From Polaribacter vadi (lineage in GTDB: Bacteria > Bacteroidota > Bacteroidia > Flavobacteriales > Flavobacteriaceae): a stretch of 64,000 nucleotides of DNA. The stretch covers positions 2,780,001 to 2,844,000 of the forward strand of contig NZ_CP017477.1 of assembly GCF_001761365.1 (NCBI RefSeq), in the 5' to 3' direction. This document shows, in pieces, positions 3,742 through 34,099 of the stretch. The notes beneath the pieces are model-generated. The model had not been told where the DNA came from, made no database searches, and saw only the letters and a program-made list of their open reading frames with translations. The position numbers were made by a program, and so were the translations under genes. Position 1 is the first letter of the stretch, and each line of letters starts with the position of its first letter.

Positions 3742-3888
3742 TTAAAGTCTTTCTTTATTTTTAGATATTTCTTTAAAGTCTGGAATACCATACGATAATA
3801 GAATGATATCGAACGGACTTAATGTTAAGTACATTCTATCAAGTAAGATTTCGTCATTTTCTTCTTTTTCTGATTTTGTTGGATTCAT
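3742..3888 (-). CDS. Small acidic protein, unknown
   Basis: A 48-aa frame starts at an ATG 7 bp after the stop of the DsbD-gamma-like gene (3896-4495), so it may be the last gene of that transcript. The product begins MNPTKSEKEENDEILLDRM and contains LSPFDIILLSYGIPDFKEI; it has no signal peptide and no cysteine. Close spacing and a protein-like composition support it. I recognise no family. It overlaps the start of a dispersed repeat, so a chance frame remains possible. Confidence 0.4.
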   Translation of the reverse strand: MNPTKSEKEENDEILLDRMYLTLSPFDIILLSYGIPDFKEISKNKERL

Positions 3889-3895
3889 TTTTTAA

Positions 3896-4495
3896 TTATT
3901 CTAAAACCTCTTCTAATACTTTTATGTTCGCTTTTATAAATGTTTTTGCTCCATTTTCTAAAAATGAAATAAAATTATTTACATCTAAATCAAATCCTTT
4001 AGGAGGTGCTAATAAGGTATCGTTTGCATCTGTTAATACATGAAATGGTTGGATGTTGTTAAAATATTGTGTAATTTGATAATCAGCATTTTGTTGCCCT
4101 ACACTTCTTATTAACTTTCCGTCATATTTAGAATTATACCACTCCTTTTTTGAGAGTTTCTCTTTATTACTTACACATAATACTACTACCACATAATACT
4201 TATTTAGAACTTCAAGTACTCGTATATCTTTACAAATTTTAGCATTCATTTTTTTACAGTTCTTCGATCTTATATTTGTAAATCGTATGAAAATGGGCTT
4301 ATTCTGCATTTTTGCAATTTTTTTTGCATCTTTTATATTGTAATAGCCTTCTAAACCATTTTGCAAAAATATTTTTTGAGGAAAAAGATTTTGACATACA
4401 TTGTTTTCTATTTTCGTATTCTCAGGATTTTGTGGTTTGTTAATATTGTTAAATGAATTTGTTACCATTCCTGCAGATGATACATTAGGATTCAT
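3896..4495 (-). CDS. DsbD C-terminal (thioredoxin-like) domain paralogue with altered active site
   Basis: A 199-aa protein. Residues 46-190 align with the thioredoxin-like C-terminal domain of the DsbD at 14042-15526: GLEGYYNIKDAKKIAKMQNK matches GLQGYFDLDQAKKCAKAQNK, and YDGK, GQQNADYQIT and LDVNNFISFL are also shared. The active site that should read CVNC reads SKNC (Ser77, Cys80), so the N-terminal cysteine needed for disulfide exchange is gone. There is no DsbD membrane domain and no clear signal peptide. It lies at the end of the minus-strand run after a DsbD-alpha-like gene that also lost its cysteines. Either it is a decaying copy or a binding protein without reductase activity. Confidence 0.75.
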   Translation of the reverse strand: MNPNVSSAGMVTNSFNNINKPQNPENTKIENNVCQNLFPQKIFLQNGLEGYYNIKDAKKIAKMQNKPIFIRFTNIRSKNCKKMNAKICKDIRVLEVLNKYYVVVVLCVSNKEKLSKKEWYNSKYDGKLIRSVGQQNADYQITQYFNNIQPFHVLTDANDTLLAPPKGFDLDVNNFISFLENGAKTFIKANIKVLEEVLE

Positions 4496-4656
4496 AATGA
4501 TACTTTGTTCTATTAATTTAATTTTTTAATAAACGATTTTACTTCGTTTGCAATGACATTTATTTTTAAAAAGGGAATGAGATAATAGTCTACAAACTCT
4601 ATTATATTCTGCTATGGCACATAACAGTTTCTCAATTCCCTTTTCTTTTAACTTTT

Positions 4657-4737
4657 TTACTGATTTGGATCTGCATCTGCACAAATTAATAATACGAGTG
4701 CGATGCATATTAAAATTATAATTGTGTAAAACAGCAT
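4657..4737 (-). CDS. Possible 26-aa membrane peptide
   Basis: The frame starts at ATG (complement 4735-4737) with an AAAGGA sequence 7 bp upstream on the minus strand. It encodes a single hydrophobic helix (MLFYTIIILICIALVLLIC) followed by ADADPNQ. The Cys after a leucine-rich stretch is loosely lipobox-like. It lies between the DsbD-alpha-like and DsbD-gamma-like genes. Support is only the ribosome-binding site, spacing and hydrophobic pattern. The longer frame in another phase at 4526-4708 is less likely because it reads through a REP-like repeat. Confidence 0.3.
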   Translation of the reverse strand: MLFYTIIILICIALVLLICADADPNQ

Positions 4738-4747: not shown

Positions 4748-5212
4748 TTATTCTATCTTAATGTTTATTTTTTTCTCTTTTAGCTCATATTCTCCTGTAT
4801 CTAATGAAACAAGCGCATAGTTTATTATTGTATGTATTGTAGGGTGTTTGCCCGTAATTTTAATCCGTTGTTTAAAGCCACCACTTATCCCCGAATATAG
4901 ATTTGCATATTCTTGCGTTGTTTGATTAATTATAGTCACTTCTTCTAATGATTTGGGTTCTCCAATTAATTCACAATTTTTTGGTTTGAAGTTTGCAATC
5001 AATGATGGGAGTACTGTTGATTTTTGATTAATGGCATAGATGAACCAATTGTGAGCAATCTCTACTTTAAAAAACAAGTCTATTTCATCACCAATTTTTA
5101 CGGATGTTTTAGAGGCATAACTATACCAATTGGCTTTTTCTTTATTTTGAGTATAACCTTGGTTTAGAGATATTATTAATGTACAAATTATCATTAATTT
5201 TTGAAAGCGCAT
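4748..5212 (-). CDS. DsbD N-terminal (alpha) domain paralogue lacking its cysteines
   Basis: A 154-aa protein with an N-terminal signal peptide (MRFQKLMIICTLIISLNQG). The fold pattern matches the other two DsbD-alpha proteins here: KANWYSYASKTSVKIGDEID, HNWFIYAI and a final beta strand. At the C-terminus the homologue at 16835-17311 has NYQVC(x6)C, whereas this one has NYALVSLDTGEY, so Val135 and Tyr142 stand where the redox cysteines should be. The only other cysteines are Cys10 in the signal and Cys80. It cannot do the usual thiol exchange with the DsbD transporter. It sits 43 bp after a frameshifted TlpA remnant in what looks like one transcript. Confidence 0.75.
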   Translation of the reverse strand: MRFQKLMIICTLIISLNQGYTQNKEKANWYSYASKTSVKIGDEIDLFFKVEIAHNWFIYAINQKSTVLPSLIANFKPKNCELIGEPKSLEEVTIINQTTQEYANLYSGISGGFKQRIKITGKHPTIHTIINYALVSLDTGEYELKEKKINIKIE

Positions 5213-5503: not shown

Positions 5504-7813
5504 TTATTTTCCTTTTCTTCTTCCTAAAAAGACAACTGCAATTACCGTTAAAACCCCTGGGATTAAAACCATATAAATCAGCATCAACCACGAAAGCCCT
5601 GTTCTGTTTAAATTTAAAGTATGATCCTCTGATGATGTTTTATGTCTTGAGCTAATTGGAAATTCATCATTGGCTAGCCATTTAAATATTCTAGGCCCTA
5701 TAGATCTTCCTGAGTTATACTGATTGCCATTGTATAATCTTTCACCGTTACTTATAAATTCTGAATCTCCAACAATCATAATGCGTTGTTGTTTGTTGCC
5801 CACCATTCTATCCAATCCTACCGCTAAAGAAATCGGATTCTCAGATAAATTGGGCATTGATAAACTACCCTTTTCTGTAGCCAGTTTTTCTATACTTACT
5901 TCTTTTCTTGTAACCAGAAGGTTCCATTTTTCAAAACCTCCTTCATTATTATAAGACATCCCTACTGCTCCTGTCATGGGCATTGTAAAGCCAATTCTAC
6001 TATTCACTCTTCTTTCCCATCCTCTTTCTTTAAATCTAGAGACAGATTCTGCTGAAACCAATCCTTTAATATGTGTATCTACTAAGTTTACATTTTTTTG
6101 GGTGGTTATTTTTCCTGGAACAAAATGGATTCCTAACGGATTTACAATAGGGGCTAAATATTTTCTATTCTCTAGTTCTGCTAGTACTAATAAGTTTTTA
6201 CCTTCTGCTATATAATTGGCAATTCGTTTTAGCCCTGTTGCAGTATAGGTACTTTTTGGATCTGCAATTAACAGAATGTCTATGTCTTCTGGGATGTCAT
6301 TTGTATCCACAGCAACATACTCAAATTTAAATCCATTGTTTGATAAAGAACTATCATCTTCTCGTGAAGATAAAACTTGATTATAGCCTTCATCTCCTTT
6401 AGAAAGTGTACACTCATCATGCCCTGTTACAACTCCTACTTTTGGTGCTTTGGTGGTTAATTTTTTAAACGCTGCTGCTATATTTTCTACACTAGGATAG
6501 GTGCCTGGTGGATTGTACAAGCGTAAAAACTCTTTTTTACCATTGTAGCTAACCTGAGTTACATAGCGATTCTCTTCGGCACTTAAATCCACCATTTTTT
6601 TAATTTCTGCTGGATTTAGAATGTTTTCAAAATCAAGACCATAAGCAGCTGCCATTTTTTTAGCTAATGGTTTACCAAAGAGTCCAGGATTATCTCTATA
6701 CACTTGGGATTTTGGTGGGATGGTATCATAAAAATGAACATATTCTAATTCTAATTGTGGTAAAAACCGGGTGAATTGATGGAATACTCTATAATTTTTA
6801 TTATAATGCTTAGGCAGTCCAGAACCTGCGGTATAGATATCTAAAATATTTACATAAAAGGTGATTTTTAAGGGATGTTCTTTCAGTTGGCTTGTAATTG
6901 CTTGGATCTCCTTGTTCAACGTTTTGTGTTTTCCTCTAGTCATATCATAAAACTTGATATTATAAGGGTTCGAGCTAAAAGAAGCTAAGCCTGTAGCTAA
7001 TAGTAAAACCACACTATATTCTAGAAGGTTTCTAAGCTTAGATTTTCCTTTCTTCTTATTGGAAAGTCTTATAATGGTAACCGCTATAAATACTCCAGTG
7101 ATAATTAAAAAGTAGCTAACACTTTGGGTGCTAATAAGACCCGAAACAATTTCTGACGATTTATGGTTTAAGTACAACCAATAAACAATATCATTGATAT
7201 AGGGAACATCTTGCCATAAATTCCCTATAAAATTAATTAACACCATAATAGCAGTTGTAATAACAGCTGCTACCATTTGATAGGAAGTTAAACTGGAAAT
7301 AAATAACCCAATTGCCGAGTAGGTACAGATTAATAAAAATATACCAAGCAAACTAGAGAGCATCAACGTATAATCTAGGGTGTCAATAATAAAATGCCCC
7401 GTCACCATATAGGTAGCTAACGATAGTATGAGTATAAAACAATAGGCTACCATCGCCAAATACTTTCCTAGTATAAGCTGGTGAAAATTGATTGGAGAGG
7501 ACAGTGGTAATTTAATAGACCCACTACTGAGTTCTTTACTGATGAGCCCCATAGTCAATATAGGAATAAAAAGAAATAAATTATCTGCAATGCTATAAAA
7601 GAATTGTTGGTTACTAGCTCTAGAAAATATAGAAGCTGTTAGGTTATTGACAGCGTTATCGCCCCACGATTCTACCCTAAACACCTGATGTTTAAGAATG
7701 TTTGTTAACCTATTTCCTCCTTGAATGGAAAAAACCACCAAGACTAACCAACCAATGGGAAAATAAAAGAGGGTGTTTAGTTCTAAACGGGCTATTCTAA
7801 ATATAGTTTTCAT
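5504..7813 (-). CDS. GldF-GldG fusion (ABC-2 permease plus GldG-type auxiliary domain), copy 2
   Basis: 769 aa. Residues 1-250 form an ABC-2 permease with about six membrane helices and the segment LTMGLISKELSSGSIKL(P/T)LS shared with copy 1. Residues 270-740 are a GldG-type ABC_transp_aux domain (KITFYVNI, GVVTGHDECTLSKGD, DILLIADP, RIMIVGDSEFISNG), followed by one C-terminal helix (SWLMLIYMVLIPGVLTVIAV). In classical gliding bacteria GldF and GldG are separate; fused forms occur across Bacteroidota as an uncharacterised ABC transporter type. It is a full-length paralogue of 7942-10230 and should pair with the ATPase at 10274-11209. Substrate unknown. Confidence 0.85.
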   Translation of the reverse strand: MKTIFRIARLELNTLFYFPIGWLVLVVFSIQGGNRLTNILKHQVFRVESWGDNAVNNLTASIFSRASNQQFFYSIADNLFLFIPILTMGLISKELSSGSIKLPLSSPINFHQLILGKYLAMVAYCFILILSLATYMVTGHFIIDTLDYTLMLSSLLGIFLLICTYSAIGLFISSLTSYQMVAAVITTAIMVLINFIGNLWQDVPYINDIVYWLYLNHKSSEIVSGLISTQSVSYFLIITGVFIAVTIIRLSNKKKGKSKLRNLLEYSVVLLLATGLASFSSNPYNIKFYDMTRGKHKTLNKEIQAITSQLKEHPLKITFYVNILDIYTAGSGLPKHYNKNYRVFHQFTRFLPQLELEYVHFYDTIPPKSQVYRDNPGLFGKPLAKKMAAAYGLDFENILNPAEIKKMVDLSAEENRYVTQVSYNGKKEFLRLYNPPGTYPSVENIAAAFKKLTTKAPKVGVVTGHDECTLSKGDEGYNQVLSSREDDSSLSNNGFKFEYVAVDTNDIPEDIDILLIADPKSTYTATGLKRIANYIAEGKNLLVLAELENRKYLAPIVNPLGIHFVPGKITTQKNVNLVDTHIKGLVSAESVSRFKERGWERRVNSRIGFTMPMTGAVGMSYNNEGGFEKWNLLVTRKEVSIEKLATEKGSLSMPNLSENPISLAVGLDRMVGNKQQRIMIVGDSEFISNGERLYNGNQYNSGRSIGPRIFKWLANDEFPISSRHKTSSEDHTLNLNRTGLSWLMLIYMVLIPGVLTVIAVVFLGRRKGK

Positions 7814-7941: not shown

Positions 7942-10230
7942 CTATTTGCTTTTTCTAATTAGTAGAAGTGTTGCTCCTACTAGTAACAAAAGCCCTGGAA
8001 TAATCCATACTAAAACAATGTTTATCCAAGAAAGTCCTTTTTTACTTACTTTAAATTGATTGTCAATAGCTGCTGGAAATCCAACTTCTGGAGGGAATTC
8101 ATCGTTAGAAAGCCATTTGAAGAGTAGTGGAATAAAGCTATGGTTAAGACTATACCTACTGCTTGATGTATATTGGGCATTGCTCATAAAATCAGCATCT
8201 CCCATGATCATAATACGTTGCTGCTTCGTATTCACATTTCTTTCTAAGCCTACTGCTAAAGGAATTGATTCTTTTAATATTGTTGGAACGGCTAAAGAAT
8301 CTTCGTTGAGGTTTTGCAAAAATGTTTCTTTCTCACTTAATAGTAAAGGCCATTTTTTAAACTTCCCAGATTCTAGATACGAAAAGCCCACAGCACCCGG
8401 AAGATTAATAGGTCGTGTTTTATAGTATTGCCAACTATGAGATAGGAGTTTTTTATCTACCTCTTTTGGAATTTCTCCAACGATAAAGCTAGGTACCATT
8501 CCTTTATTTTTTTGGGTAAGTTCTCCAGGAATAAAATCTACTTCTAATTTATTTACAATTGACTTTATATAATCTCTATTAGTAGGTTCTGCCATGATTA
8601 AGGTATTACCTCCGTTAGTTATATATTTAGCTACTCTTTCTTCCTCTTCTTTGGTGAACGGAGATTTAACATCTGCAATAACTAGAATATCTATTCTTTT
8701 TGGAATGTCATTCTCTTCAACAGAAACATATTCAAATTTAAAACCTTGATTTAATAAGGAGTTCCGGTTGGTGTTCTTTCCAATAGTATGTCGTCCATAG
8801 TCTGTTTTATTTTGATCTAAATTCCGTTCTCCATGTCCTGTTAAAAAACCGACGCTGGGTACTTTTGTAACCAATTGCTTTAGCGACGCCCCTATTTGTA
8901 AATCAAAAGGCACATGAGGAGTATCATCAAAAAAACGCAAGAATGCTTTTTTGCCGTTGTAAGTTATTTGGGTCAGGTATTGGTTTTCTTCATCATTTAG
9001 GTCCACAATTTCTCGTATTTCCTCTGGAGGCAATACCCTGTCAAAATCGATATCATAAGCCCTTGCTTTTCTTTTAGCCAATGCTTCACCATACAACCCT
9101 TCTTTGTTTTCATATTCCATAGATGCTGCAGGAATGGTATCGTAATAATACACATAGTCCGTTTCTAGTTGCGGTAAAAAACGGGTGTATTTACCAAATA
9201 TGTATCTATAGTTATTATTTTTAGATCTTGGTGTACCCGAAGACATCATTGATTGGTCAATAAGATTGGCATAAAAGGTTACTTTTAAAGGATGCTCTTT
9301 TAGTTTGCTAACCACCTCTTGTAATTCTGGACTGATGGTATTGGTCTTCCCTCTAGTCATATCGTAATAGGCAATGTTATACGGATTTGAGGAGAAAGCA
9401 CCAATACCAAATGCTATTACTAGTACCAATGCGTATTCTAAACGAATTTTACCTTTAGATTTGCTTTTCCATTTATTAGAGAGTTTTAATATGGTAAAGG
9501 TAATCAATACCCCAATGATGATTAAAAAGTAAAATACGGTTTTGCTATTGATAAGTCCTATAGAAATTTCACCTACCTGGTAGTTCAATGCCAACCAAAA
9601 CTCAATTTCACTGACTACTGGTATTTCTTGCCAAAGCCACCCGATACTTGAGAGTACCAATATAATTGCCATGGTAACAATTGCTGCAACTATCTGATAG
9701 GATGTAAAACTAGAAACATACAAACCAATAGCGGAATAGGTACATACTAATAAAAAGACTCCTAAAAGTCCTGATATAACCAATTTATAATCTAACGATT
9801 CAATTGCAACTCCACCAGCAATCATTACGAGTACCAATACAAGAATCAACACAAGACTATAAATGACCATTGCCAAATATTTTCCCAATACGAGCTGACG
9901 AAAATTAACAGGAGAGGATAAGGTTAGTTTAATAGACCCAGAACTCAATTCTTTACTAATAAGCCCCATGGTTAACAAAGGAATATAGAAAAACAAATTG
10001 CTAGTAACTGATTTAAATAAATTTTCTGGCCAGTATGAACTTGCAAAAATTTCTTTTGTTAAAGAACGAGAGAAAAACTCCCCTAACTCCATTCGTTCTA
10101 AAAAAGAGACTAAAAGACTTGTAAATACGGTTCCAGCATGAAGGGTAAAAATAATTAGTACAATCCAAGCAATGGGAGAATAGAACATCGTACTTAATTC
10201 GTTACGTGCTATTTTTAATGTCGTTTTCAT
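7942..10230 (-). CDS. GldF-GldG fusion (ABC-2 permease plus GldG-type auxiliary domain), copy 1
   Basis: 762 aa, same layout as its neighbour: an N-terminal ABC-2 permease (ARNELSTMFYSPIAWIVLII, then about five further helices to residue 250), an extracytoplasmic GldG-type domain (PSVGFLTGHGERNLDQNK, IDILVIADVKSPF, QRIMIMGDADFMSN) and a C-terminal helix before IRKSK. It begins 43 bp after the ATPase gene, so the two are probably co-transcribed. The presence of two different fusions with one ATPase suggests a heterodimeric permease. A role in gliding is not implied, since the other gld genes are not here. Confidence 0.85.
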   Translation of the reverse strand: MKTTLKIARNELSTMFYSPIAWIVLIIFTLHAGTVFTSLLVSFLERMELGEFFSRSLTKEIFASSYWPENLFKSVTSNLFFYIPLLTMGLISKELSSGSIKLTLSSPVNFRQLVLGKYLAMVIYSLVLILVLVLVMIAGGVAIESLDYKLVISGLLGVFLLVCTYSAIGLYVSSFTSYQIVAAIVTMAIILVLSSIGWLWQEIPVVSEIEFWLALNYQVGEISIGLINSKTVFYFLIIIGVLITFTILKLSNKWKSKSKGKIRLEYALVLVIAFGIGAFSSNPYNIAYYDMTRGKTNTISPELQEVVSKLKEHPLKVTFYANLIDQSMMSSGTPRSKNNNYRYIFGKYTRFLPQLETDYVYYYDTIPAASMEYENKEGLYGEALAKRKARAYDIDFDRVLPPEEIREIVDLNDEENQYLTQITYNGKKAFLRFFDDTPHVPFDLQIGASLKQLVTKVPSVGFLTGHGERNLDQNKTDYGRHTIGKNTNRNSLLNQGFKFEYVSVEENDIPKRIDILVIADVKSPFTKEEEERVAKYITNGGNTLIMAEPTNRDYIKSIVNKLEVDFIPGELTQKNKGMVPSFIVGEIPKEVDKKLLSHSWQYYKTRPINLPGAVGFSYLESGKFKKWPLLLSEKETFLQNLNEDSLAVPTILKESIPLAVGLERNVNTKQQRIMIMGDADFMSNAQYTSSSRYSLNHSFIPLLFKWLSNDEFPPEVGFPAAIDNQFKVSKKGLSWINIVLVWIIPGLLLLVGATLLLIRKSK

Positions 10231-13929: not shown

Positions 13930-14007
13930 AGTGTGTGTTTAAATAGGCTCCTTAATTTTATTATATGGTTGCTTGTTGTATTGGTTTTATGATTTTTGTT
14001 TTCATTT

Positions 14008-14035
14008 TGAGATTACTTCGTTCCTCGCAATGACG
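14008..14035. repeat. REP-like element
   Basis: A TGAGATTAC...CTCGCAATGACG copy in the gap between the DsbD and MutS-like genes. The arms GATTac and GCAATGAC are partly complementary. Confidence 0.6.
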
Positions 14036-14041
14036 TTTTTT

Positions 14042-15526: not shown

Positions 15527-15632
15527 TGTTTTTTATTTCTTTTTAATTGTTCAACTTTTTGATGTTGATATAAGTAATCTTTTATTCTTTTGTTCCTTTC
15601 TTTTTTGCATTGATCAAAAAAGAAACAAAAAA

Positions 15633-15785: not shown

Positions 15786-15816
15786 TGACTTATTTTATTG
15801 TTCTCTTTTTATTTTA

Positions 15817-15875
15817 TGAGATTGCATGATCTTGACTCCGCTCGATACAAGCTCTGTTTCCTCCTCGCAATGACA
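15817..15875. repeat. REP-like element with longer centre
   Basis: TGAGATTGC at the left and CTCGCAATGACA at the right, with about 38 bp between them; the same arms as the other REP-like copies of the accessory half. Confidence 0.5.
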
Positions 15876-15940
15876 TTTGTTTTATTTTCATATTCTTTTC
15901 TTCTAATACTTTTTATTCACTCATTTCATTTTTTAGCGGA

Positions 15941-25007: not shown

Positions 25008-25147
25008 AAGTTTATATTTATTTTTTGACCACATATAATATTCAACTAAACATTTATTTATTAATCTAAAATTTAGTCATGTATATTTCATCTGTACTGT
25101 TTTATCATTTTTCTATCTATTCTCTTTCCATTAGTCGGCTCTTTTCA

Positions 25148-28100
25148 CTAAAATGATAGATTTAATCCCATAGTAAATTGCCGTAATGAAGACAAATTTC
25201 TGGGGGATGGGGTCTCTGGATCTCCACCATCATATTTGGTAATTACAAACAAGTTTTGTCCTTGTAGATAGACGTTTAAATCCAATCCCTTTATTAGTTC
25301 TTTGGGAAGGGTATAACTCAATGATACATTTCGTAATCGGATAAATGAGCCGTCAATAATACCAGCATTGCTAAATAAATAATTTTCCTGTGCATCCTTT
25401 TCTTCAGAGGTCCCCAAAAAATGATAACGTTGGATTGGATTCTGATCGCCTGCTTGCTGCCAACGATCTAAAGCTGTTATCAATATGTTTGAACTAGAAC
25501 CAGGTTTCAGGCTTCTAGCAAAATACGATCTGATTTTCTGCTTTGTAAATTGGAAGAAGATCTCAAATTGTAAGTTTTTGTATGTTAGAGTATTTCCCAA
25601 GCCTCCAAAATATTTAGGCCCTAAATTCTCAAGCCATTGTTTGTCATCCCTGCCAATAACGCCATCATTATTATAATCTTCATATTGATAAACACCTGTC
25701 TCTAAATCCACTCCTATTAAATGAAATAATTTATTAATAGTTACAGGCTCTCCCAACACAAGTGTTCTAGCAAAGGAAGTGTTTTCCAAATTATCAAATT
25801 TTATAAGTTTGTTTTTATTAAAGGAGATATTAAAGTTGGTGCGCCAAGTAAATTGGTCACTCTTTATACTTACAGTATGTAAATCGATCTCTAACCCCGT
25901 ATTTTGGACTAAAGCATCGAAGTTGCCATTTATATCAGCAAAGCCTGTAGTAATTGGTAAAGGGATATCAATTAGTTGGTTGGAAGAACGGTTGTGATAC
26001 CAAGCCGTAGACAAAGAAACACGATTATTAAAAAATTCCATATCTAAAGCAGCTTCTAACTTCTTGGTCTCTCCCCAGGCAAAATTTGGATTAAAAAGAC
26101 CTGTAGGATCTAACCCTGGACCATTATAATTACCAGCTCGATCACCTGAATAGGTATCCAAAAATTGGTAATTTCCTATATTATCACTACCCGTTATACC
26201 ATAACTGGCACGCAATTTTCCAAAACTTAAAAGCTTACTATTTTCCAAAATCTTTTCCTCTGAAAATATCCAGGCCGCTCCAACGGCTCCAAAATAACCA
26301 AATTGTTTGCCAGGACCAAAGCGAGAGGACCCGTCACGACGCCCAGTAAGATTTACAATATATTTATCATCATAGTCAAGATTAACCCTAGCAAAGAACG
26401 ATTGATATCTATATTTGGAACCTGTATCCGATAAAACAGTAATTCGATCAGCAGCTTTAAGATTGAGAATTTGGCTGTTACTAGCAAACCCAGATGCAAT
26501 TAAATCAGATCGTTGGTCCTTATTACCCTGAAAGGTAGCTCCTACTAATACTTTTAGTTCGGTCTTCCCCAAATGGTGTTTCCAATTAATTTGTGGCTCT
26601 ACGATCCAGGATTGTCGAGATCCATTATTTTTAATTATATTAGAGTTACTACTGTCATACCCAATAACTGGACCGAAACGGGTATGTGGTAACGCCCAAT
26701 ACGAGCTCAAATGATAGTCTGTATACCCCAGACTTGTTTTAAACTCAAGTGTAGGAATTGGGTGATATGATAATACAGCATTAGTAATTAGATTACGAGT
26801 GACAACATTATAGTCTTCTTCAAAATAAGACAAAGGGTTTCTCCATGTAAAATTTTCCCAATTTAAATTACCACTATTATCGAATAAATTAGGAGCATTA
26901 GGTGCTAAGGTCCTGGCCTGCTCTGTTAAATCATTTCCTGGTAGATTATTGGTGTCTGAACCATAATTTCCAGAAAAATTCAATTTAAATTTTTCATCTT
27001 CAGATTGGTGATTAATATTAACAAGCAGCGTTGTTTTGTCATATTTTGAGTCTCCTGGAAATACAGTACTCTCTGTCGAATAGCCTCCACTTAACATAAA
27101 CTGAGTAAATTTATTACCTCCTGAAAATGACAGTTGTACATTTCGTCTGTAAGCTATGCCACCAATAAGAACCTCTTGCCAATCTGTATAGTGATTTTGA
27201 TCCCATAAATATAAGTCCGGAGCTCTGCGCTTATATTGGTCTGGCAGTGATTCCAGAGTGTAACCATCATTATTAATAGCCTCCCTCCGTACTTCTAAAT
27301 ATTGCTGCGTATTTAATAAATCTACAAAACTAGCCACTTCACTTAAGGTAGTACTCATATTAAATTTGACCTGTGTTTTTCCAACTTTGCCTTTTTTTGT
27401 AGTGATTAGAATCACGCCATTGGCTCCTCGAGATCCGTAAATAGCCGTAGCATCTGCATCCTTAAGCACTTCGATACTTTTAATGTCTGCTGGATTTACA
27501 GTATTTAATGGACTTACGCCACCAGGGCTATTAAATCCTTCTGTAGTACTATTAGACTCCAATGACCCAGAATCATATGGTATCCCATCGATCACATATA
27601 AAGGATTATTTTCAGTACTATATGTTCCTGCTAGTCCATTTAAAAAGTTTAACCCTCGGATTTGTATACGAAAATTCCCCCCAGGAAGCCCTCCATTTTG
27701 GGCAATATTTACACCCGAGACATGACCTTGTAAAGCTATAATAGGATTATTAACGGGTTGTTTTTCTATGGTTTTAGCTTCTACTTTACTAATGTTTCCC
27801 GTTCTTTTTCTTTCGGAAGTATTGTAATAACCAGCATTGATCGTTATTTCATCCAACTGGCTAATGTCCTCTTTAAGTATAACATTTATCACCGTTTGAT
27901 TTCCTACTGTAATCTCTTGTTTTTGAAAACCTAAATACGAAAACACTAGTACATTCGCAGGATCTGATACCGTAATGACATATTGTCCATCTAAATTAGT
28001 AGCTACACCATTATTTGTACCCTTTATTAAAACAGTAACACCAGGTATGGTGAGACCTAATTGATCTGTGACTCTACCAGAGATTTGATACTGCTGTGTA

Positions 28101-28480
28101 TTCCTCTTCTTTATGAGAATATTATTATTAGCCGTAAAAATAATATCAATGTCGTTTACAGAAAGACTGTGGCTTAATAACTTTTTTAGCCTTATAACTC
28201 CTTTTTTGAGCTTTACTTTAGAAAGCCCATTGAACAAATTCTCATGATATATAAAAGAATAATCCGTTTGCTCCTTAATAATCTTAAATACCTCATCAAC
28301 AGAAATCATTTTATCAGCATCTATCATAATCTTATCTTTTTGAGAGAAGACATGTTTTGGTGTTAAACAGAACAGTGTTGTACAAAACAAGAATATAAAG
28401 GTTCGCATCATGAGTTTTATAAAACCTTTCCCCGTTAAAAAAAGGTTATTCGTTATTATTTCATTAAATTTACGAAACAT
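25148..28480 (-). CDS. SusC/RagA TonB-linked receptor with STN signalling domain
   Basis: 1110 aa. A cytoplasmic lead and signal (MMRTFIFLFCTTLFCLTP) are followed by an STN domain (about residues 50-126, IDADKMISVDEVFKIIKEQT), a carboxypeptidase-like beta-sandwich (132-203, SGRVTDQLGLTIPGVTVLIK), a plug (NPIIALQGHVSGVNIAQNGG, ADATAIYGSRGANGVILITT) and a long beta-barrel ending in LNLSF. It imports a ligand through the outer membrane with TonB energy. The STN domain is known to contact a FecR-type anti-sigma factor, and one is encoded at 32180-33325, so ligand binding probably controls this operon. An alternative start is the Met at residue 24 (28411). Confidence 0.93.
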   Translation of the reverse strand: MFRKFNEIITNNLFLTGKGFIKLMMRTFIFLFCTTLFCLTPKHVFSQKDKIMIDADKMISVDEVFKIIKEQTDYSFIYHENLFNGLSKVKLKKGVIRLKKLLSHSLSVNDIDIIFTANNNILIKKRNTQQYQISGRVTDQLGLTIPGVTVLIKGTNNGVATNLDGQYVITVSDPANVLVFSYLGFQKQEITVGNQTVINVILKEDISQLDEITINAGYYNTSERKRTGNISKVEAKTIEKQPVNNPIIALQGHVSGVNIAQNGGLPGGNFRIQIRGLNFLNGLAGTYSTENNPLYVIDGIPYDSGSLESNSTTEGFNSPGGVSPLNTVNPADIKSIEVLKDADATAIYGSRGANGVILITTKKGKVGKTQVKFNMSTTLSEVASFVDLLNTQQYLEVRREAINNDGYTLESLPDQYKRRAPDLYLWDQNHYTDWQEVLIGGIAYRRNVQLSFSGGNKFTQFMLSGGYSTESTVFPGDSKYDKTTLLVNINHQSEDEKFKLNFSGNYGSDTNNLPGNDLTEQARTLAPNAPNLFDNSGNLNWENFTWRNPLSYFEEDYNVVTRNLITNAVLSYHPIPTLEFKTSLGYTDYHLSSYWALPHTRFGPVIGYDSSNSNIIKNNGSRQSWIVEPQINWKHHLGKTELKVLVGATFQGNKDQRSDLIASGFASNSQILNLKAADRITVLSDTGSKYRYQSFFARVNLDYDDKYIVNLTGRRDGSSRFGPGKQFGYFGAVGAAWIFSEEKILENSKLLSFGKLRASYGITGSDNIGNYQFLDTYSGDRAGNYNGPGLDPTGLFNPNFAWGETKKLEAALDMEFFNNRVSLSTAWYHNRSSNQLIDIPLPITTGFADINGNFDALVQNTGLEIDLHTVSIKSDQFTWRTNFNISFNKNKLIKFDNLENTSFARTLVLGEPVTINKLFHLIGVDLETGVYQYEDYNNDGVIGRDDKQWLENLGPKYFGGLGNTLTYKNLQFEIFFQFTKQKIRSYFARSLKPGSSSNILITALDRWQQAGDQNPIQRYHFLGTSEEKDAQENYLFSNAGIIDGSFIRLRNVSLSYTLPKELIKGLDLNVYLQGQNLFVITKYDGGDPETPSPRNLSSLRQFTMGLNLSF

Positions 28481-28855: not shown

Positions 28856-31339
28856 TTACTTCTTAATAATTCTTTTTGTTTCCGTACCTGCAGCAGTATG
28901 TATTTGTAAAATATACATACCCTTTGTTAAATTGCTCACATCAATATGTTCTTGTTTACTTTGTAATACCATTTGCCCTAAACTATTATACACATTAATA
29001 TACTTTAGATCTGACACATTTTTTATATTCAAGATATTTTGCACTGGATTAGGATATACCCTTGTTTTTTGAGAAATATAATTAACTGGAATAGACAAAG
29101 TTGCATCACTCACTGATAAATCATCAAATGCCATAAGTCCTCCAGAAGATGTTACCGTAAATGACGTTACACCTGTCCAATTTAAGTCTACCGCACTTCC
29201 TAATACTCCATCTACCAATGACACCACTACTGGTGAATTACTGCCGCCTGTGGGGGTAAACGTATAATTTAGAGTTCTTCCAAAAAGTTCTACAGCAATA
29301 ATGGAATTGACATCCACCGCCTCACTAAATGTAAACGTTGCTGAAGAACCACTAGCTAAAACAGCAAACCCAGAAGCTCCTCCATAACCGTCAGCCGAAC
29401 CAGTATAAACAGTATCGTCAGGATCTGTACTGGTATCATTGTTGAACGTTACCGTAATTCCATCAATGGCCTCCGTTATATTATTACCATTATCAACTGC
29501 ATTGGTGTCAAAATCAAAAACAATTCCTGATGGAGAACTAGCGATTGCACTTACTGATAAATCATCAAATGCCATAAACCCTCCAGAGGATGTTACAGTA
29601 AAGGACGTTACTCCTGTCCAATTTAAGTTGACTGTTGGAGCAACCCCTCCTACCAATGACACCACTACTGGTGAATTACTGCCGCCTGTGGGGGTAAACG
29701 TATAATCCAGAGAGGCCGTAGCTGCCTCTATTGCTATGATGGAATTGACATCCACCGCCTCACTAAATGTAAATGTTGCTGATGAGGCGCTACTAGCTAA
29801 AACAATATCTCCTGAGCTGCCACCAAATGAACTAGCTGCTACTGCCGAAGTATCGTCAGGATCTGTACTGGTATCATTGTTGAACGTTACCATAATTCCA
29901 TCAATGGCCTCCGTTACATTATTACCATTATCAACTGCATTGGTGTCAAAATCAAAAACAATTCCTGATGGAGAACTAGCGATTGCACTTACTGATAAAT
30001 CATCAAATGCCATAAACCCTCCAGAGGATGTTACAGTAAAGGACGTTACTCCTGTCCAATTTAAGTTGACTGTTGGAGCAACCCCTCCTACCAATGACAC
30101 CACTACTGGTGAATTACTGCCGCCTGTGGGGGTAAACGTATAATCCAGAGAGGCCGTAGCTGCCTCTATTGCTATGATGGAATTGACATCCACCGCCTCA
30201 CTAAATGTAAATGTTGCTGATGAGGCGCTACTAGCTAAAACAATATCTCCTGAGCTGCCACCAAATGAACTAGCTGCTACTGCCGAAGTATCGTCAGGAT
30301 CTGTACTGGTATCATTGTTGAACGTTACCGTAATTCCATCAATGGCCTCCGTTATATTATTACCATTATCAACTGCATTGGTGTCAAAATCAAAAACAAT
30401 TCCTGATGGAGAACTAGCGATTGCACTTACTGATAAATCATCAAATGCCATAAACCCTCCAGAGGATGTTACAGTAAAGGACGTTACTCCTGTCCAATTT
30501 AAGTTGACTGTTGGAGCAACCCCTCCTACCAATGACACCACTACTGGTGAATTACTGCCGCCTGTGGGGGTAAACGTATAATCCAGAGAGGCCGTAGCTG
30601 CCTCTATTGCTATGATGGAATTGACATCCACCGCCTCACTAAATGTAAATGTTGCTGATGAGGCGCTACTAGCTAAAACAATATCTCCTGAGCTGCCACC
30701 AAATGAACTAGCTGCTACTGCCGAAGTATCGTCAGGATCTGTACTGGTATCATTGTTGAACGTTACCATAATTCCATCAATGGCCTCCGTTACATTATTA
30801 CCATTATCAACTGCATTGGTGTCAAAATCAAAAACAATTCCTGATGGAGAACTAGCGATTGCACTTACTGATAAATCATCAAATGCCATAAACCCTCCAG
30901 AGGATGTTACAGTAAAGGACGTTACTCCTGTCCAATTTAAGTTGACTGTTGGAGCAACCCCTCCTACCAATGACACCACTACTGGTGAATTACTGCCGCC
31001 TGTGGGGGTAAACGTATAATCCAGAGAGGCCGTAGCTGCCTCTATTGCTATGATGGAATTGACATCCACCGCCTCACTAAATGTAAATGTTGCTGATGAG
31101 GCGCTACTAGCTAAAACAATATCTCCTGAGCTGCCACCAAATGAACTAGCTGCTACTGCCGAAGTATCGTCAGGATCTGTACTGGTATCATTGTTGAACG
31201 TTACCGTAATTCCATCAATGGCCTCCGTTACATTATTACCATTATCAACTGCATTGGTGTCAAAATCAAAAACGGTTTGTGCACTAGCTGTATTGAAAGC
31301 TAATGCAAATAGCACTAATAAAAATGTAATTTTTTTCAT
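28856..31339 (-). CDS. T9SS-secreted repeat protein (adhesin-like)
   Basis: 827 aa. A signal peptide (MKKITFLLVLFALAFNTASA) is followed by four almost identical 146-residue units (residues 23-168, 169-314, 315-460, 461-606), a fifth divergent unit (607 to about 750), and a C-terminal type IX sorting domain (RVYPNPVQNILNIKNVSDLK, GMYILQI, TKRIIKK). The units are rich in Ser, Thr, Val and Asp, contain FDFDTNAVDNG, DDLSVS and FTPTGGSNSP, and have no Cys; they look like beta-sandwiches. Type IX substrates are exported and usually fixed at the cell surface. It sits between FecR and SusC, so it is probably part of the same regulon. Binding function is inferred; no enzyme motif is visible. Confidence 0.85.
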   Translation of the reverse strand: MKKITFLLVLFALAFNTASAQTVFDFDTNAVDNGNNVTEAIDGITVTFNNDTSTDPDDTSAVAASSFGGSSGDIVLASSASSATFTFSEAVDVNSIIAIEAATASLDYTFTPTGGSNSPVVVSLVGGVAPTVNLNWTGVTSFTVTSSGGFMAFDDLSVSAIASSPSGIVFDFDTNAVDNGNNVTEAIDGIMVTFNNDTSTDPDDTSAVAASSFGGSSGDIVLASSASSATFTFSEAVDVNSIIAIEAATASLDYTFTPTGGSNSPVVVSLVGGVAPTVNLNWTGVTSFTVTSSGGFMAFDDLSVSAIASSPSGIVFDFDTNAVDNGNNITEAIDGITVTFNNDTSTDPDDTSAVAASSFGGSSGDIVLASSASSATFTFSEAVDVNSIIAIEAATASLDYTFTPTGGSNSPVVVSLVGGVAPTVNLNWTGVTSFTVTSSGGFMAFDDLSVSAIASSPSGIVFDFDTNAVDNGNNVTEAIDGIMVTFNNDTSTDPDDTSAVAASSFGGSSGDIVLASSASSATFTFSEAVDVNSIIAIEAATASLDYTFTPTGGSNSPVVVSLVGGVAPTVNLNWTGVTSFTVTSSGGFMAFDDLSVSAIASSPSGIVFDFDTNAVDNGNNITEAIDGITVTFNNDTSTDPDDTVYTGSADGYGGASGFAVLASGSSATFTFSEAVDVNSIIAVELFGRTLNYTFTPTGGSNSPVVVSLVDGVLGSAVDLNWTGVTSFTVTSSGGLMAFDDLSVSDATLSIPVNYISQKTRVYPNPVQNILNIKNVSDLKYINVYNSLGQMVLQSKQEHIDVSNLTKGMYILQIHTAAGTETKRIIKK
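29522..31273. repeat. Four tandem 438-bp repeats in the T9SS protein gene
   Basis: Units span 30836-31273, 30398-30835, 29960-30397 and 29522-29959, all 438 bp and nearly identical. Two variable sites alternate: CCGTAATTCC versus CCATAATTCC, and GTTATATTATT versus GTTACATTATT. Units 2 and 4 carry one form and units 3 and 5 share the other near their start. That pattern suggests amplification of an 876-bp dimer. The fifth unit (29084-29521) has diverged over its middle. Antisense open frames of 88-135 codons recur in each unit and are shadows. Confidence 0.9.
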
Positions 31340-32179
31340 GATTTGTATTTTTTAATTATTATTTAGTATTTGTTGTTTTCTGTTAAGTGCCTTCTTGCGA
31401 ATTAGTTTATTTGCTAAACAGTTTCGCTTATTGTTTTTATCATTTATATCATAATATGGTGATACCATATATAATAACAAGGTAAAATTTGTGTGAGCAC
31501 ATCATTTATACTTCTGTAATAAGCGCATAATATGGGCTCTATACTTGCATAACAATAAAAAGCAATAGTAGGGTGGTATCTTTGTTAAAAAATATTTAAT
31601 TATTTGTAACTAATTTATGAAAATAAATTTGTTTCACTGTTTAAAGGGTGTGTAAACTATTTGAAAACAACATATAGTACTAGGAGATTGAGTTCGTTTA
31701 CACCAGCAAGCCCTTCTACTATTTTTGTTAAAAATTAAATGCTTTGCTAAAAGAATGTTACTTATAAGCTGTTGTGCATTTTTAAGTTAGCCTATAAGAG
31801 AATGCCGGTTTAAGTGATTTTGACGCAGGAAAAATTGTATTGAACACTCATTATAAAAGCCAAAATTTTTATTCTCGATACAAATTTTACTCCTTTTAAT
31901 CGTAAAATTTATTCGAATTGACAGCATGTTATCAAAATGCACAATAGGTTTACTTTAATCTAATTGTACCTTCTTTACCAAGATAGTAAACCTTTTGTTT
32001 TTTTTATGTTTAAGCAATAGACGATGGTTTACTTTTTTATTTATAACAAGTTTTTTTATTGCCAAAAATTAAATCCACCTTTTTTTGTGAAGCAGATATC
32101 TGCCATAAAGAGACACGATGCCAGCGACAGAGAGGAAAGTATTATTTATTAGCCCAATGAAAGCGTTTGTATGGGTTCT
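31340..32179. other. 840-bp non-coding region between FecR and the repeat protein
   Basis: No supported gene on either strand. A perfect palindrome GCAGATATCTGC lies at 32092-32103. The rest is AT-rich with no T-run hairpin I can defend. The length is notable: it is likely to hold the promoter of the repeat protein, perhaps used by the adjacent ECF sigma factor, but no motif can be fixed from a single sequence. Confidence 0.5.
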
Positions 32180-33325
32180 TTACTTAATTGTTACTGTTTT
32201 ATCGTTTATTTCATAGTTATTGATGAAATTGGTGCTCTTAATGGCTATAAGAATATCTTCGATGCTGTTACTTTTATTGAATGTCCCAATAAATTGTTCT
32301 TCTGTTTGCACCCCATTTTCAATAACCACGTCTATATCGTACCAACGAGACAGTACTTTAAAAATATCTTTTAGCGATTTCTTTTCAAAACTAAAAACAC
32401 CCTCTTTCCAGGCGGTTTCGTTGTACACATCCACCATAGCCAAACTTATGTTATTCGTATCCAAGTTAAGATTTGCCTGTTGGTTGGGAACTAATATTTG
32501 ATTTTTATCTGCAGTACTTACCGCTACCTTACCTTCTACCAACGTGGTATACACGTTTGTCTCCCCCTTATACGCTTTTATATTGAACTCGGTCCCTAGG
32601 ACTTCGACTTCTTGAGCTTGATTAAACACCTTGAACTTTGCCCCCTTGTGCTCTGTACTTGGTGACACATCGAAATAGGCTTCTCCGTAAACGAGTTCTA
32701 CCTGGCGCGTTTCCCCATCTTTAAAAGATACAGGGTATTTAATTTGAGTTTCGGAATTTAACCATACCATGGTGCCGTCTGCTAAGGTAGTTTTGAATTG
32801 CCCACCTCTTGGAATGGTTAGGGTGTTAAAGGATGTTTTGTTGTTGGTTGCTTTATTGTACACAATTTCCTCACCATTACTGGTTACCTGAGCTGTTTGG
32901 TAGGTGGTGCCTTTTGCAAGCGTTATTTCTTCTCCATTTTCTAACGTTAGGGTGGCTTTGTCGCTACCCTTTTTGATATTGTTGTTTACGATAATGGGTT
33001 CTGTAATTGGTGTATCGTTCGTTTTATTTACATTAAAAAATACGGTGAGGGCTACTATAATAAGTACGGATGCGGCAGCGGCATATTTGTAATAGCGTTT
33101 TCTTACCGGTGTTTTTAATTGACTACTAACGGTTTCCCAATCTTTTTCTGTGTTAATTTCTTTTAAAAGATCTACGTGTTTACCGTCTTTAATATCTGAG
33201 AGTATCTGTTCTTTTTTTTCATCACCAATAGCATTAAGTTCCTTTAAATCCTTTGGATTTTCATTCTTAATTAAAGCGGCTGCTATTTTTTTTGAAATTG
33301 GTTTTATTTTATTGGAATTACCCAT
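32180..33325 (-). CDS. FecR-family anti-sigma factor
   Basis: 381 aa. Residues 1-80 form the cytoplasmic sigma-binding part, 83-100 one membrane helix (AAAASVLIIVALTVFFNV), and 110-290 the periplasmic FecR domain (IKKGSDKATLTLENGEEITL, IPRGGQFKTTLADGTMVWLN, YFDVSP, VEVLGTEFNIKAY, VEGKVAV). The C-terminal DUF4974/STN-like part has VFSFEKKSLKDIFKVLSRWY. It should hold the ECF sigma factor encoded 165 bp upstream (33491-34099) and release it when the SusC transducer (25148-28480) signals through its STN domain. Complete and normal in length. Confidence 0.92.
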   Translation of the reverse strand: MGNSNKIKPISKKIAAALIKNENPKDLKELNAIGDEKKEQILSDIKDGKHVDLLKEINTEKDWETVSSQLKTPVRKRYYKYAAAASVLIIVALTVFFNVNKTNDTPITEPIIVNNNIKKGSDKATLTLENGEEITLAKGTTYQTAQVTSNGEEIVYNKATNNKTSFNTLTIPRGGQFKTTLADGTMVWLNSETQIKYPVSFKDGETRQVELVYGEAYFDVSPSTEHKGAKFKVFNQAQEVEVLGTEFNIKAYKGETNVYTTLVEGKVAVSTADKNQILVPNQQANLNLDTNNISLAMVDVYNETAWKEGVFSFEKKSLKDIFKVLSRWYDIDVVIENGVQTEEQFIGTFNKSNSIEDILIAIKSTNFINNYEINDKTVTIK

Positions 33326-33490
33326 TTAGATTTTTTTTAAGTTAAAAACTTATTTTACAATTTTTTTAAAATTCAAAACGATGCTACATGCCCATTGTTT
33401 TTCTCTGGTTTTTCGTTTTCAATCCATTGCTATAGCAATGACTACGAATACGGTAAAAGATGAAATTTAACTGAGTGATCATAACTTATT

Positions 33491-34099
33491 TTAATAACAA
33501 AAATGTAGCATGAGTTCTATGTTTATAATTAATACAACAGAATGATAAAAAGGAGTGGTATCTAAATGTTGAAGAAATTTCCTTAATTTTCGATAGGACA
33601 TTTTTTTATGATCCTTAACGGTATTAATAGATATGGATAATTGTTCTGCTATCTCTTTATTTGTATAGCCTTTCATACTTAATCTTATGACTTTAGTCGC
33701 TTTTTCTGGTAGTTTTTTGAGGGCATTTTCTACAGCGACGGTGGTTTCTATAACGATAGCTTCAGACATAAATAATTCCTCGCTTTCAAAGTCTTCTGCT
33801 TTTGCAGTTTCATAACGCTCTGTAACCCTATACTGTTTGCTTTTTAAATAATTGAGACATTTATTTCTTACGGCTTTGTAAAAAAAACCTGTTGCATGGT
33901 TGTCATTCTCGAAAGCTATTTTATCTTCCCAGACTTTAATAAAAACTTCTTGAGCCATGTCTTTTGCGATTCCCATATCTTGGAGGTATTTATAGGCAAA
34001 CACACAAAGTTGTGGATATAAGCTATTAAAAAGTTTATTATACTCTTTTAGCGTAAATTGGTTCTCATTTCTTCTCACTAACCATAGTATTTGTATCAA
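33491..34099 (-). CDS. ECF RNA polymerase sigma factor (FecI-like, Bacteroidota type)
   Basis: 202 aa. Region 2 (YNKLFNSLYPQLCVFAYKYL, AKDMAQEVFIKVWED, NKCLNYLKSK) and region 4 (KKLPEKATKVIRLSMKGYTN, KEIAEQLSISINTVKDHKKM) are complete. The last 25 residues (TTPFYHSVVLIINIELMLHF) are hydrophobic and longer than usual; this may be a recent extension of the frame. With FecR downstream it forms the regulatory pair for the SusC-SusD locus. It is the promoter-distal-most gene of the cargo on this strand, next to the integrase. Confidence 0.9.
   Translation of the reverse strand: MIQILWLVRRNENQFTLKEYNKLFNSLYPQLCVFAYKYLQDMGIAKDMAQEVFIKVWEDKIAFENDNHATGFFYKAVRNKCLNYLKSKQYRVTERYETAKAEDFESEELFMSEAIVIETTVAVENALKKLPEKATKVIRLSMKGYTNKEIAEQLSISINTVKDHKKMSYRKLRKFLQHLDTTPFYHSVVLIINIELMLHFCY

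What the first reader, a model, noticed from the sequence alone, without database searches (positions are those of the whole stretch)
3742..34099. A candidate undescribed unit: regulated SusC-SusD uptake, periplasmic thiol chain, MutS-like ATPase pair and GldAFG-type ABC exporter
All on one strand, in order: ECF sigma, FecR, T9SS repeat protein, SusC with STN domain, SusD, FG-GAP protein, DsbD-alpha, TlpA, lipoprotein, DsbD-alpha, a 48-aa Cys protein, DsbD, two MutS-like ATPases, a GldA-like ATPase, two GldF-GldG fusions, then redox-altered copies. There is no glycan enzyme, so this is not a normal polysaccharide locus. The repeated use of DsbD/TlpA parts points to a thiol-containing ligand or peptide. 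Each family call is solid; joining them into one system is inference, and the decayed zone at 17.3-19.0 kb may separate two units.
Basis: partly seen in the sequence, partly recalled or inferred. Interest (0 to 1): 0.75.

Follow-up and report, generated by a model that had tools for sequence, protein, structure and literature searches.

The report
SusCD uptake locus with MutS-like ATPases
A stretch of bacterial DNA carries a regulated outer-membrane import system next to an inner-membrane ABC transporter and a pair of MutS-like ATPases, a combination that recurs in many related bacteria and for which we found no published description.

Summary
Joining the parts into one unit is supported by homologous loci. 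Of 80 loci found through MutS1, 63 have enough upstream sequence; 45 of these also carry SusC, SusD, GldA-like and GldF-GldG-fusion genes, commonly as FecR-SusC-SusD-GldA-GldFG-MutS1-MutS2. The two MutS genes are adjacent (71) or fused (7) in 78 of 79 countable loci. Starting from GldFG instead, all four further loci (three genomes) lie beside SusC-SusD; two of them lack MutS. FG-GAP, DsbD_N, TlpA and DUF4397 each recur in such loci, and FG-GAP is often fused to DsbD_N. The inner block (GldA/GldFG/MutS) is conserved, while its SusC/SusD partners differ widely. The 48-aa Cys protein is a separate widespread family; the DsbD membrane gene was found only here. Two transcripts are likely. The locus lies beside an integrase at a tRNA-Leu, and MutS1 was found in no other of 166 genomes of the genus. 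Most likely it takes up and processes oligopeptide-like ligands; the role of the MutS pair is unknown. Ten paper searches found no description.

The parts
33491..34099 (-). ECF sigma factor
   Evidence: Sigma70_r2, Sigma70_r4_2; sigma genes beside FecR in several homologous loci
32180..33325 (-). FecR-type anti-sigma factor
   Evidence: FecR and FecR_C over cut-off; FecR-labelled genes in 41 of 80 loci
28856..31339 (-). Secreted protein with near-identical repeats and T9SS C-terminal signal; probably not a core part
   Evidence: Por_Secre_tail; no tblastn match in the loci held
25148..28480 (-). SusC-type TonB-dependent transporter
   Evidence: TIGR04056 739 bits, over cut-off; Plug
23568..25034 (-). 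SusD-type surface lipoprotein lid
   Evidence: SusD_RagB and SusD-like_3
21926..23434 (-). FG-GAP repeat protein with invariant vicinal Cys-Cys
   Evidence: FG-GAP_3; 309 family members at E<=1e-20, 16 of the 120 listed fused to DsbD_N; C150 C151 invariant in 22 rows
21278..21754 (-). Stand-alone DsbD N-terminal (alpha) domain, both Cys present
   Evidence: DsbD_N 42.5 bits; same order SusC-SusD-FGGAP-DsbD_N in L150; Cys pair
19785..21122 (-). TlpA/ResA-like thiol-disulfide oxidoreductase with long N-terminal part
   Evidence: Redoxin, AhpC-TSA; CxxC at residue 339
19056..19763 (-). DUF4397 putative lipoprotein
   Evidence: DUF4397 36.1 bits; a relative lies between SusD and GldA in L116 and L125, both from genome G198
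16835..17311 (-). Second DsbD_N protein (ATG start 17311; longer TTG frame to 17380)
   Evidence: DsbD_N 30.3 bits
14042..15526 (-). DsbD transmembrane domain plus thioredoxin domain (beta-gamma)
   Evidence: DsbD_TM, Thioredoxin_7; tblastn found only the window's own copies in the loci held
12601..13929 (-). MutS-like ATPase 1 (core domain III plus ATPase domain V only)
11271..12599 (-). MutS-like ATPase 2, 1 bp from the first
   Evidence: MutS_V, MutS_III; 41% identical to MutS1; MutS genes adjacent in 71 of 79 loci and fused in 7 more
10274..11209 (-). GldA-like ABC ATPase
   Evidence: ABC_tran; TIGR03522 289.1 bits, cut-off 402.6
7942..10230 (-). GldF-GldG fusion permease 1
   Evidence: ABC2_membrane_2 plus ABC_transp_aux; TIGR03518 80.5 bits, below cut-off
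5504..7813 (-). GldF-GldG fusion permease 2
   Evidence: ABC2_membrane_2 plus ABC_transp_aux; 49% identical to the first
4748..5212 (-). DsbD_N-like copy without the two active-site Cys
   Evidence: alignment; only BatD at E=0.02 in Pfam
3896..4495 (-). Thioredoxin-domain copy of the DsbD C-terminus, first Cys of CxxC lost
   Evidence: Thioredoxin_7 23.8 bits, below cut-off; alignment

Best explanation
The locus is a probably horizontally acquired member of a widespread, apparently undescribed Bacteroidota unit: an ECF-sigma/FecR-controlled SusC-SusD importer joined to a dedicated ABC-2 transporter (GldA-like ATPase with GldF-GldG fusion permeases) and usually a pair of short MutS-like ATPases. 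Shown: the parts, their recurrence and order, conserved ATPase motifs, lack of the DNA mismatch and connector domains, fusion of the two MutS proteins in some loci, and two co-varying blocks (SusC/SusD, and GldA/GldFG/MutS). Inferred: SusCD brings a large ligand, most likely an oligopeptide or peptide natural product, into the periplasm; TlpA and the DsbD/FG-GAP proteins keep thiols reduced or open disulfides; companion peptidases, where present, cut the ligand; the ABC transporter moves the ligand or its product at the inner membrane; the two MutS-like proteins form a heterodimeric cytosolic ATPase that works on that transporter or its cargo rather than on DNA; ligand presence is signalled through FecR to the sigma factor. 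In this window the unit is probably made as two transcripts.
For: Of 80 loci found with MutS1, blastp labels SusC in 61, SusD in 56, GldA in 62, FecR in 41. Of 63 with at least 8.5 kb upstream, GldFG 57, GldA 56, SusC 54, SusD 50, all four 45. MutS genes adjacent in 71 of 79 countable loci and fused in one chain with two Walker A and two Walker B motifs in 7 more. In 30 of 49 loci GldA directly follows SusD. Independent start from the GldFG fusion: 4 of 148 genomes hold it, the window's own included; the four other loci, from three genomes, all carry FecR-SusC-SusD (L114, L115, L116, L125). G680 of the same family has FecR-SusC-SusD-GldA-GldFG-MutS1-MutS2 with a divergent sigma gene. L150 repeats the order sigma-FecR-SusC-SusD-FGGAP-DsbD_N; L153 has SusC-SusD-DUF4843-PKD2-TlpA-FGGAP/DsbD_N-TlpA-M16; L061 has FG-GAP/DsbD_N directly after the MutS pair. 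Block structure: rank correlations SusC-SusD 0.82, GldA-GldFG 0.84, MutS-GldFG 0.65, MutS-GldA 0.57, between blocks 0.16-0.37; median identities 25% for SusC and SusD, 42-61% for the others (36 of 80 loci). Peptide hint: M16 or metzincin on the same strand in 17 of 80 loci; S9 in L090 and, outside the 80, S8 in L152. Walker A and B in 85 of 85 MutS1-type and 58 of 58 MutS2-type proteins of 420-500 aa.
Against: No ligand, transcript or phenotype data. 63 of 80 loci show no same-strand M16 or metzincin gene in the stretch read, and two have a glycosidase gene downstream (L064 GH2, L035 GH9). The window itself has no peptidase. 9 of the 63 loci with upstream sequence have no SusC label (L025, L026, L028, L029, L031, L033, L039, L052, L070), and 7 of these nine do have GldA-GldFG, so the inner block also stands without a SusC nearby. 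MutS is not obligatory: L114 and L115 lack it. The short MutS-like fold also occurs alone: in the family sample G033 (40% identical to MutS1) and G018 carry it without labelled SusCD, GldA or GldFG (L122, L123); in the phylum sample 7 of 9 genomes with a match at E<=1e-60 hold a more distant lineage, and the 7 loci read from 6 of them show no such array (L121 has one SusC-like gene about 7 kb away, L117 and L126 a generic ABC ATPase; G116 not read). G011 has separate GldA- and GldFG-like genes without labelled SusCD (L124). In the window the MutS pair precedes GldA, whereas the common order is the reverse. The MutS-SusD correlation is reached by 18 of 200 permutations. DsbD_TM was found only in the window.
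Confidence: 0.5

Rival explanations
1. Two neighbouring but separate systems: a SusCD/FG-GAP/DsbD_N/TlpA/DUF4397 uptake locus and a DsbD/MutS/GldA/GldFG locus that happen to lie together on one island.
For: 1744-bp gap without a long ORF between them; SusCD-FGGAP-DsbD_N occurs without GldA/GldFG/MutS in the stretches read of L150, L152 and L153; 7 loci have GldA-GldFG-MutS with no SusC label.
Against: In 30 of 49 loci SusD is directly followed by GldA; DUF4397 lies between SusD and GldA in L116 and L125; FG-GAP/DsbD_N follows the MutS pair in L061. TlpA, M16 and DUF4843/PKD_2 companions occur with both kinds of locus.
Confidence: 0.2
2. Defence against peptide antibiotics: SusCD and thiol proteins capture and inactivate a peptide while a LanFEG/DrrAB-like ABC transporter expels it from the inner membrane.
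For: After GldA the best NCBIfam hits of the ATPase are DrrA (202.4 bits) and the lantibiotic-protection ATPase (177.2 bits), both below cut-off; peptidases in 17 of 80 loci.
Against: General ABC similarity; in PADLOC only the ABC ATPase has hits, best a partial mad3 match of 88 bits; active import of a toxin by SusCD would be an odd defence.
Confidence: 0.12
3. Acquisition of a metal bound to a peptide carrier: SusCD imports it, thiol proteins and the vicinal Cys-Cys FG-GAP protein release or hold the metal, and the ABC transporter recycles the carrier.
For: Invariant vicinal Cys in the FG-GAP family, fusion to DsbD_N; a preprint reports SusC/SusD genes near MNIO peptide clusters (PMC12636315, passages only).
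Against: No metal enzyme or metal regulator family appeared among the window genes scanned; TlpA-labelled genes in only 13 of 80 loci.
Confidence: 0.08
4. An export or assembly system: the GldA/GldFG transporter builds a surface structure, with SusCD only as a neighbour.
For: Relation to gliding GldA, GldF and GldG.
Against: All three are below the family cut-offs, a true GldA lies elsewhere in the genome (466.4 bits), and the usual neighbour is an importer.
Confidence: 0.05

Closest known systems
Polysaccharide utilization locus (Sus-type, ECF sigma/FecR controlled)
   Same: SusC-SusD pair, sigma/FecR control
   Different: No glycan-active enzyme found in the window; carries a dedicated ABC-2 transporter and MutS-like ATPases
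Peptide-importing SusCD systems (RagAB, BT2261-64; peptide ligands per passages of PMC7782687)
   Same: SusC-SusD architecture; peptidase companions in some homologous loci
   Different: SusC sequence is not especially close to RagA (195 bits) or BT2264 (122.7 bits) compared with 8aa4 (327.7 bits)
Gliding-motility ABC transporter GldA-GldF-GldG
   Same: ATPase and permease families, ABC_transp_aux domain
   Different: GldF and GldG fused in one chain, scores below all three cut-offs, separate true GldA in the genome
MutS / MutS2 ATPases
   Same: Core domain III and ATPase domain V; conserved Walker motifs
   Different: No mismatch-binding or connector domains; occurs as an adjacent or fused pair beside a transporter
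KamC (lysine 5,6-aminomutase reactivase ATPase)
   Same: MutS-type ATPase named for a non-DNA role
   Different: 110.1 and 112 bits against a cut-off of 300; no aminomutase among the window genes scanned

Membership tests
Polysaccharide utilization locus | Adjacent SusC and SusD genes | tested here: met
Polysaccharide utilization locus | Glycan-active enzymes in the locus | tested here: not met
   No glycosidase, lyase or esterase family among the genes scanned between 3896 and 34099 (Pfam only)
ECF sigma/FecR trans-envelope signalling | Sigma factor and FecR anti-sigma beside the transporter | tested here: met
ECF sigma/FecR trans-envelope signalling | STN domain in the transporter | tested here: inconclusive
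   Not found by Pfam at E<=0.01; an N-terminal extension of suitable length is there
Gliding-motility GldAFG | Scores above TIGR03522, TIGR03518 and TIGR03521 cut-offs | tested here: not met
   289.1/402.6, 80.5/288.5, 22.5/389.85; a true GldA lies elsewhere
MutS mismatch repair | ATPase domain V with Walker motifs | tested here: met
MutS mismatch repair | Mismatch-binding domain I and connector II | tested here: not met
   No MutS_I or MutS_II match in Pfam at E<=0.1; the 442-aa model of MutS1 aligns to E. coli MutS from residue 264/265 on; TIGR01070 116.5 and 114 bits, cut-off 641.7
KamC reactivase | Score above NF052383 cut-off | tested here: not met
   110.1 and 112 versus 300
DsbD thiol reductase | DsbD_N, DsbD_TM and thioredoxin domains | tested here: met
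   All present but split over two genes, 16835-17311 and 14042-15526
Peptide-importing SusCD | Peptide ligand bound or imported | not testable with these tools
   Only companion peptidases in 17 of 80 homologous loci
Integrative element | Tyrosine integrase beside a tRNA, flank homology ending at the tRNA 3' end | tested here: met
   (flank homology ends at 35936-35941 in 4 of 7 relatives read; in the other 3 it ends at 36089-36155, before the tRNA)
Integrative element | Defined second end and transfer genes | tested here: inconclusive
   18-bp repeat at window -36337, but genes such as pyruvate carboxylase lie between; transfer genes not sought systematically

The most novel reading that the evidence does not exclude
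Bacteroidota use a common inner-membrane machine, in which a heterodimer of MutS-fold ATPases without DNA-recognition domains drives or gates a GldA/GldFG-type ABC transporter, as an exchangeable back end for many different SusCD importers. It would be a new kind of envelope transport system in which MutS-type ATPases act on protein or peptide cargo.
Probability: 0.3. Interest if true: 0.88.

Novelty: new variant of a known kind. Interest (0 to 1): 0.66.

Why it matters
SusCD importers are central to Bacteroidota nutrition (general knowledge), yet how large ligands are handled after the outer membrane is unclear where no glycan enzymes are present. A conserved transporter-ATPase block attached to many different SusCD pairs offers a testable answer and could extend MutS-fold ATPases to a new task. 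Several relatives of this block carry the name DNA mismatch repair protein (names), which misleads annotation.

Tried and rejected
Considered and rejected: mismatch repair (no domains I/II); gliding motility (below cut-offs and separate true GldA); anti-phage defence (PADLOC: only ABC ATPase hits, best 88 bits and partial); the 48-aa Cys protein as a part (79 proteins at E<=0.001 including the query, two named Acidobacteriota and Methylomirabilota by a source; no tblastn hit in the loci held, a set that held no positive control for it). DUF4843 and PKD_2 companions gave no solved-structure match at E<=0.01, so no peptide-binding claim rests on them. Terminator evidence is weak: the 9-bp hairpin at 18889-18910 was listed for the + strand only, and the whole scan found 13 sites against 8.6 (sd 2.9) in shuffles. 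A left end for the island was not found: the 18-bp repeat of the tRNA 3' end at window -36337 leaves pyruvate carboxylase inside, and beyond the tRNA the relatives matched the 164 kb compared only in L141 (three matches at window 70-77 kb) and L144 (193 bp near -55.9 kb). The FG-GAP search in 296 phylum genomes found only the window's own genome at E<=1e-40, so its context comes from 3 of 301 genomes of G198's family and from L061. Two papers that shared search words proved unrelated (PMC4010731: an 894-aa MutS on a fosmid; PMC10266427: M16 is a cell label; passages read).

Full report
The observation. The window is 64 kb of a 3.81-Mb single-contig genome. The gaps between genes are 1 to 375 bp except FecR to the repeat protein (840), DUF4397 to the second DsbD_N (1744), the second DsbD_N to the 48-aa ORF (385) and that ORF to DsbD_TM (776). 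The last two gaps hold degenerate repeats. A 9-bp hairpin lies at 18889-18910 after DUF4397, but the scan lists it as terminator-like for the + strand only, and its 13 sites are not clearly more than the 8.6 (sd 2.9) of shuffles. From the 1.7-kb gap I infer two transcripts, 34.1 to 19.06 kb and 17.3 to 3.9 kb.

The recurrent unit. A profile of 26 relatives of MutS1 was used to scan GTDB species genomes; the 80 best of at least 505 confirmed stretches were kept with up to 10 kb on each side. 79 of the 80 titles name Bacteroidota groups as I know them; one reads only 'bacterium A37T11'. Genes were called mechanically and labelled by best blastp match to the window's proteins at E<=1e-3. Labels: SusC in 61 of 80 loci, SusD 56, GldA 62, FecR 41, sigma 21, TlpA 13, FG-GAP 3. 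The GldFG cluster covers 68 loci. MutS is present by construction. In one locus (L034) a long frame on the other strand was picked over MutS, so 79 are countable. In 71 of the 79 two MutS genes are adjacent. In 7 more (L025, L026, L027, L030, L032, L038, L089) they form one chain of 894-929 aa with two Walker A and two Walker B motifs. Of the 63 loci with at least 8.5 kb upstream, 57 have GldFG, 56 GldA, 54 SusC, 50 SusD and 45 all four. The 9 without a SusC label are L025, L026, L028, L029, L031, L033, L039, L052 and L070; 7 of them do have GldA and GldFG. Among 49 loci with SusD upstream of GldA on the same strand, 30 have nothing labelled or over 100 aa between them, 8 have one ~300-aa protein (weak Peptidase_Mx1 similarity, below cut-off), and 7 have DUF4843 plus PKD_2. 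For scale, this genome has 50 Plug-domain matches in 3.81 Mb, so a random 20-kb stretch would hold about a quarter of one; that is my arithmetic for one genome only. Eleven source genomes contribute two to four of the 80 loci (record names, tallied by hand).

A check that does not start from MutS. The GldFG profile was searched in 148 genomes of the phylum: 4 have it, the window's own included. I read the surroundings of all. The four further loci (L114, L115, L116, L125; three genomes) all carry FecR-SusC-SusD next to it. MutS genes are present in L116 and L125 (in L125 the contig end cuts MutS1) and absent from the 20 kb read of L114, which has M16 instead, and L115, which has two GldFG genes. 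The MutS profile at E<=1e-60 found 9 of 148 genomes. Besides the window's genome and G198, the other 7 carry a more distant lineage; 7 loci read from 6 of them (G116 not read) show no such array, though L121 has one SusC-like gene about 7 kb away and L117 and L126 a generic ABC ATPase. In the family sample, G033 (40% identical to MutS1 over its length) and G018 carry a MutS-like gene without labelled SusCD, GldA or GldFG in 20 kb, and G011 has separate GldA- and GldFG-like genes without labelled SusCD. So the fused-GldFG transporter is tied to SusCD more tightly than the MutS fold as such.

Two co-varying blocks. In the 36 of 80 loci that hold all five genes in strict arrangement, median pairwise identity is 25% for SusC and for SusD, but 61% for GldA, 53% for MutS and 42% for GldFG. 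Rank correlation of pairwise identities is 0.82 for SusC-SusD and 0.57-0.84 inside GldA/GldFG/MutS, but 0.16-0.37 between the blocks (of 200 label permutations none reached the value, except 18 for MutS-SusD and 1 for GldA-SusD). I read this as one conserved inner machine attached to SusCD pairs of many specificities.

The redox parts. The FG-GAP family has 309 members at E<=1e-20 among the 8000 candidates scored; 16 of the 120 listed carry a DsbD_N domain in the same chain, and two adjacent cysteines are invariant in 22 aligned members. L061 (Chitinophaga tropicalis) has such a fusion right after its MutS pair. L150 has sigma-FecR-SusC-SusD-FGGAP-DsbD_N as in the window (there without a repeat protein between FecR and SusC); L152 and L153 have SusC, SusD, TlpA, FG-GAP/DsbD_N and an M16 peptidase. 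These three are the only matches at E<=1e-60 in 301 genomes of that family, and the stretches read lack GldA, GldFG and MutS. DUF4397 sits between SusD and GldA in L116 and L125, two loci of one genome. Thus both halves of the window are tied to loci of the same kind. By contrast DsbD_TM matched only the window's own copies in the loci held, and no gene of the 80 loci was labelled by the two Cys-poor terminal copies. Those copies have lost active-site cysteines: decaying duplicates, or non-redox binders. The 48-aa protein is a small conserved family of its own and I leave it out.

Ligand. Same-strand M16 or metzincin genes occur in 17 of 80 loci, S9 and S8 peptidases in single loci (L090; L152 outside the 80), and M16 in L114, L152 and L153. 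Two loci have a glycosidase gene downstream (L064, L035). A peptide ligand is the better guess but is not shown. The window itself has no peptidase.

Mobility. A tyrosine integrase (34454-35704) lies beside a tRNA-Leu (35942-36024). Homology to relatives of the same genus runs from 37.9 kb and ends at 35936-35941, the tRNA 3' end, in 4 of 7 relatives read; in the other three it ends at 36089-36155, before reaching the tRNA. RteC lies at 2356-3201. MutS1 at E<=1e-80 occurs in 1 of 166 genomes of the genus, the window's own, and at E<=1e-100 in 2 of 397 of the family, the window's own included. Horizontal gain is likely; the left end is unresolved.

Literature. Ten searches of the held open-access library (one search was rejected for its wording) showed no paper that describes this unit. 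Three gave no paper; four gave more hits than were listed usefully (12 of 101: 15 of 263: 8 of 998: 8 of 256), one search listed 10 of 20, all 17 and its one. I saw listings with the starts of abstracts, and passages in PMC12636315, PMC7782687, PMC4010731 and PMC10266427. Most subscription papers are not in the library.

Verdict. A real, widespread and apparently undescribed combination. Function is inferred only.

Noticed in passing
34454-36024 and 737-3201: Tyrosine integrase next to tRNA-Leu(caa), and RteC with two small ORFs that look like mobile-element DNA-binding genes (recalled, not tested) at the other side: an integrative element. An exact 18-bp copy of the tRNA 3' end lies at window coordinate -36337 (L132:3663-3680), but genes such as pyruvate carboxylase lie between.
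   Followed up: partly
16303-16449: 48-aa protein with three Cys belongs to a conserved small family (79 proteins incl. the query at E<=0.001), two of them named Acidobacteriota and Methylomirabilota by a source; no Pfam match, function unknown.
   Followed up: partly
21926-23434: FG-GAP family with invariant vicinal Cys-Cys, fused to DsbD_N in 16 of 120 listed members.
   Followed up: partly
L025, L026, L027, L030, L032, L038, L089: MutS1 and MutS2 fused in one chain of 894-929 aa with two Walker A and two Walker B motifs.
   Followed up: partly
28856-31339: T9SS-signal protein of near-identical repeats with a repeated 135-aa open frame on the opposite strand; sits between FecR and SusC.
   Followed up: no
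14000-17000: Degenerate interspersed repeats (TCCTCGCAATGACG type) in the gaps around the second DsbD_N, the 48-aa ORF and DsbD_TM.
   Followed up: partly
L074, L077, L079, L085: MutS pair directly followed by sigma-FecR-SusC-SusD without GldA/GldFG labels in the stretch read.
   Followed up: no
L041:13663-17031: 1122-aa protein with ABC2_membrane_2 and a Golvesin C-terminal domain after a MutS pair: possible variant permease.
   Followed up: no
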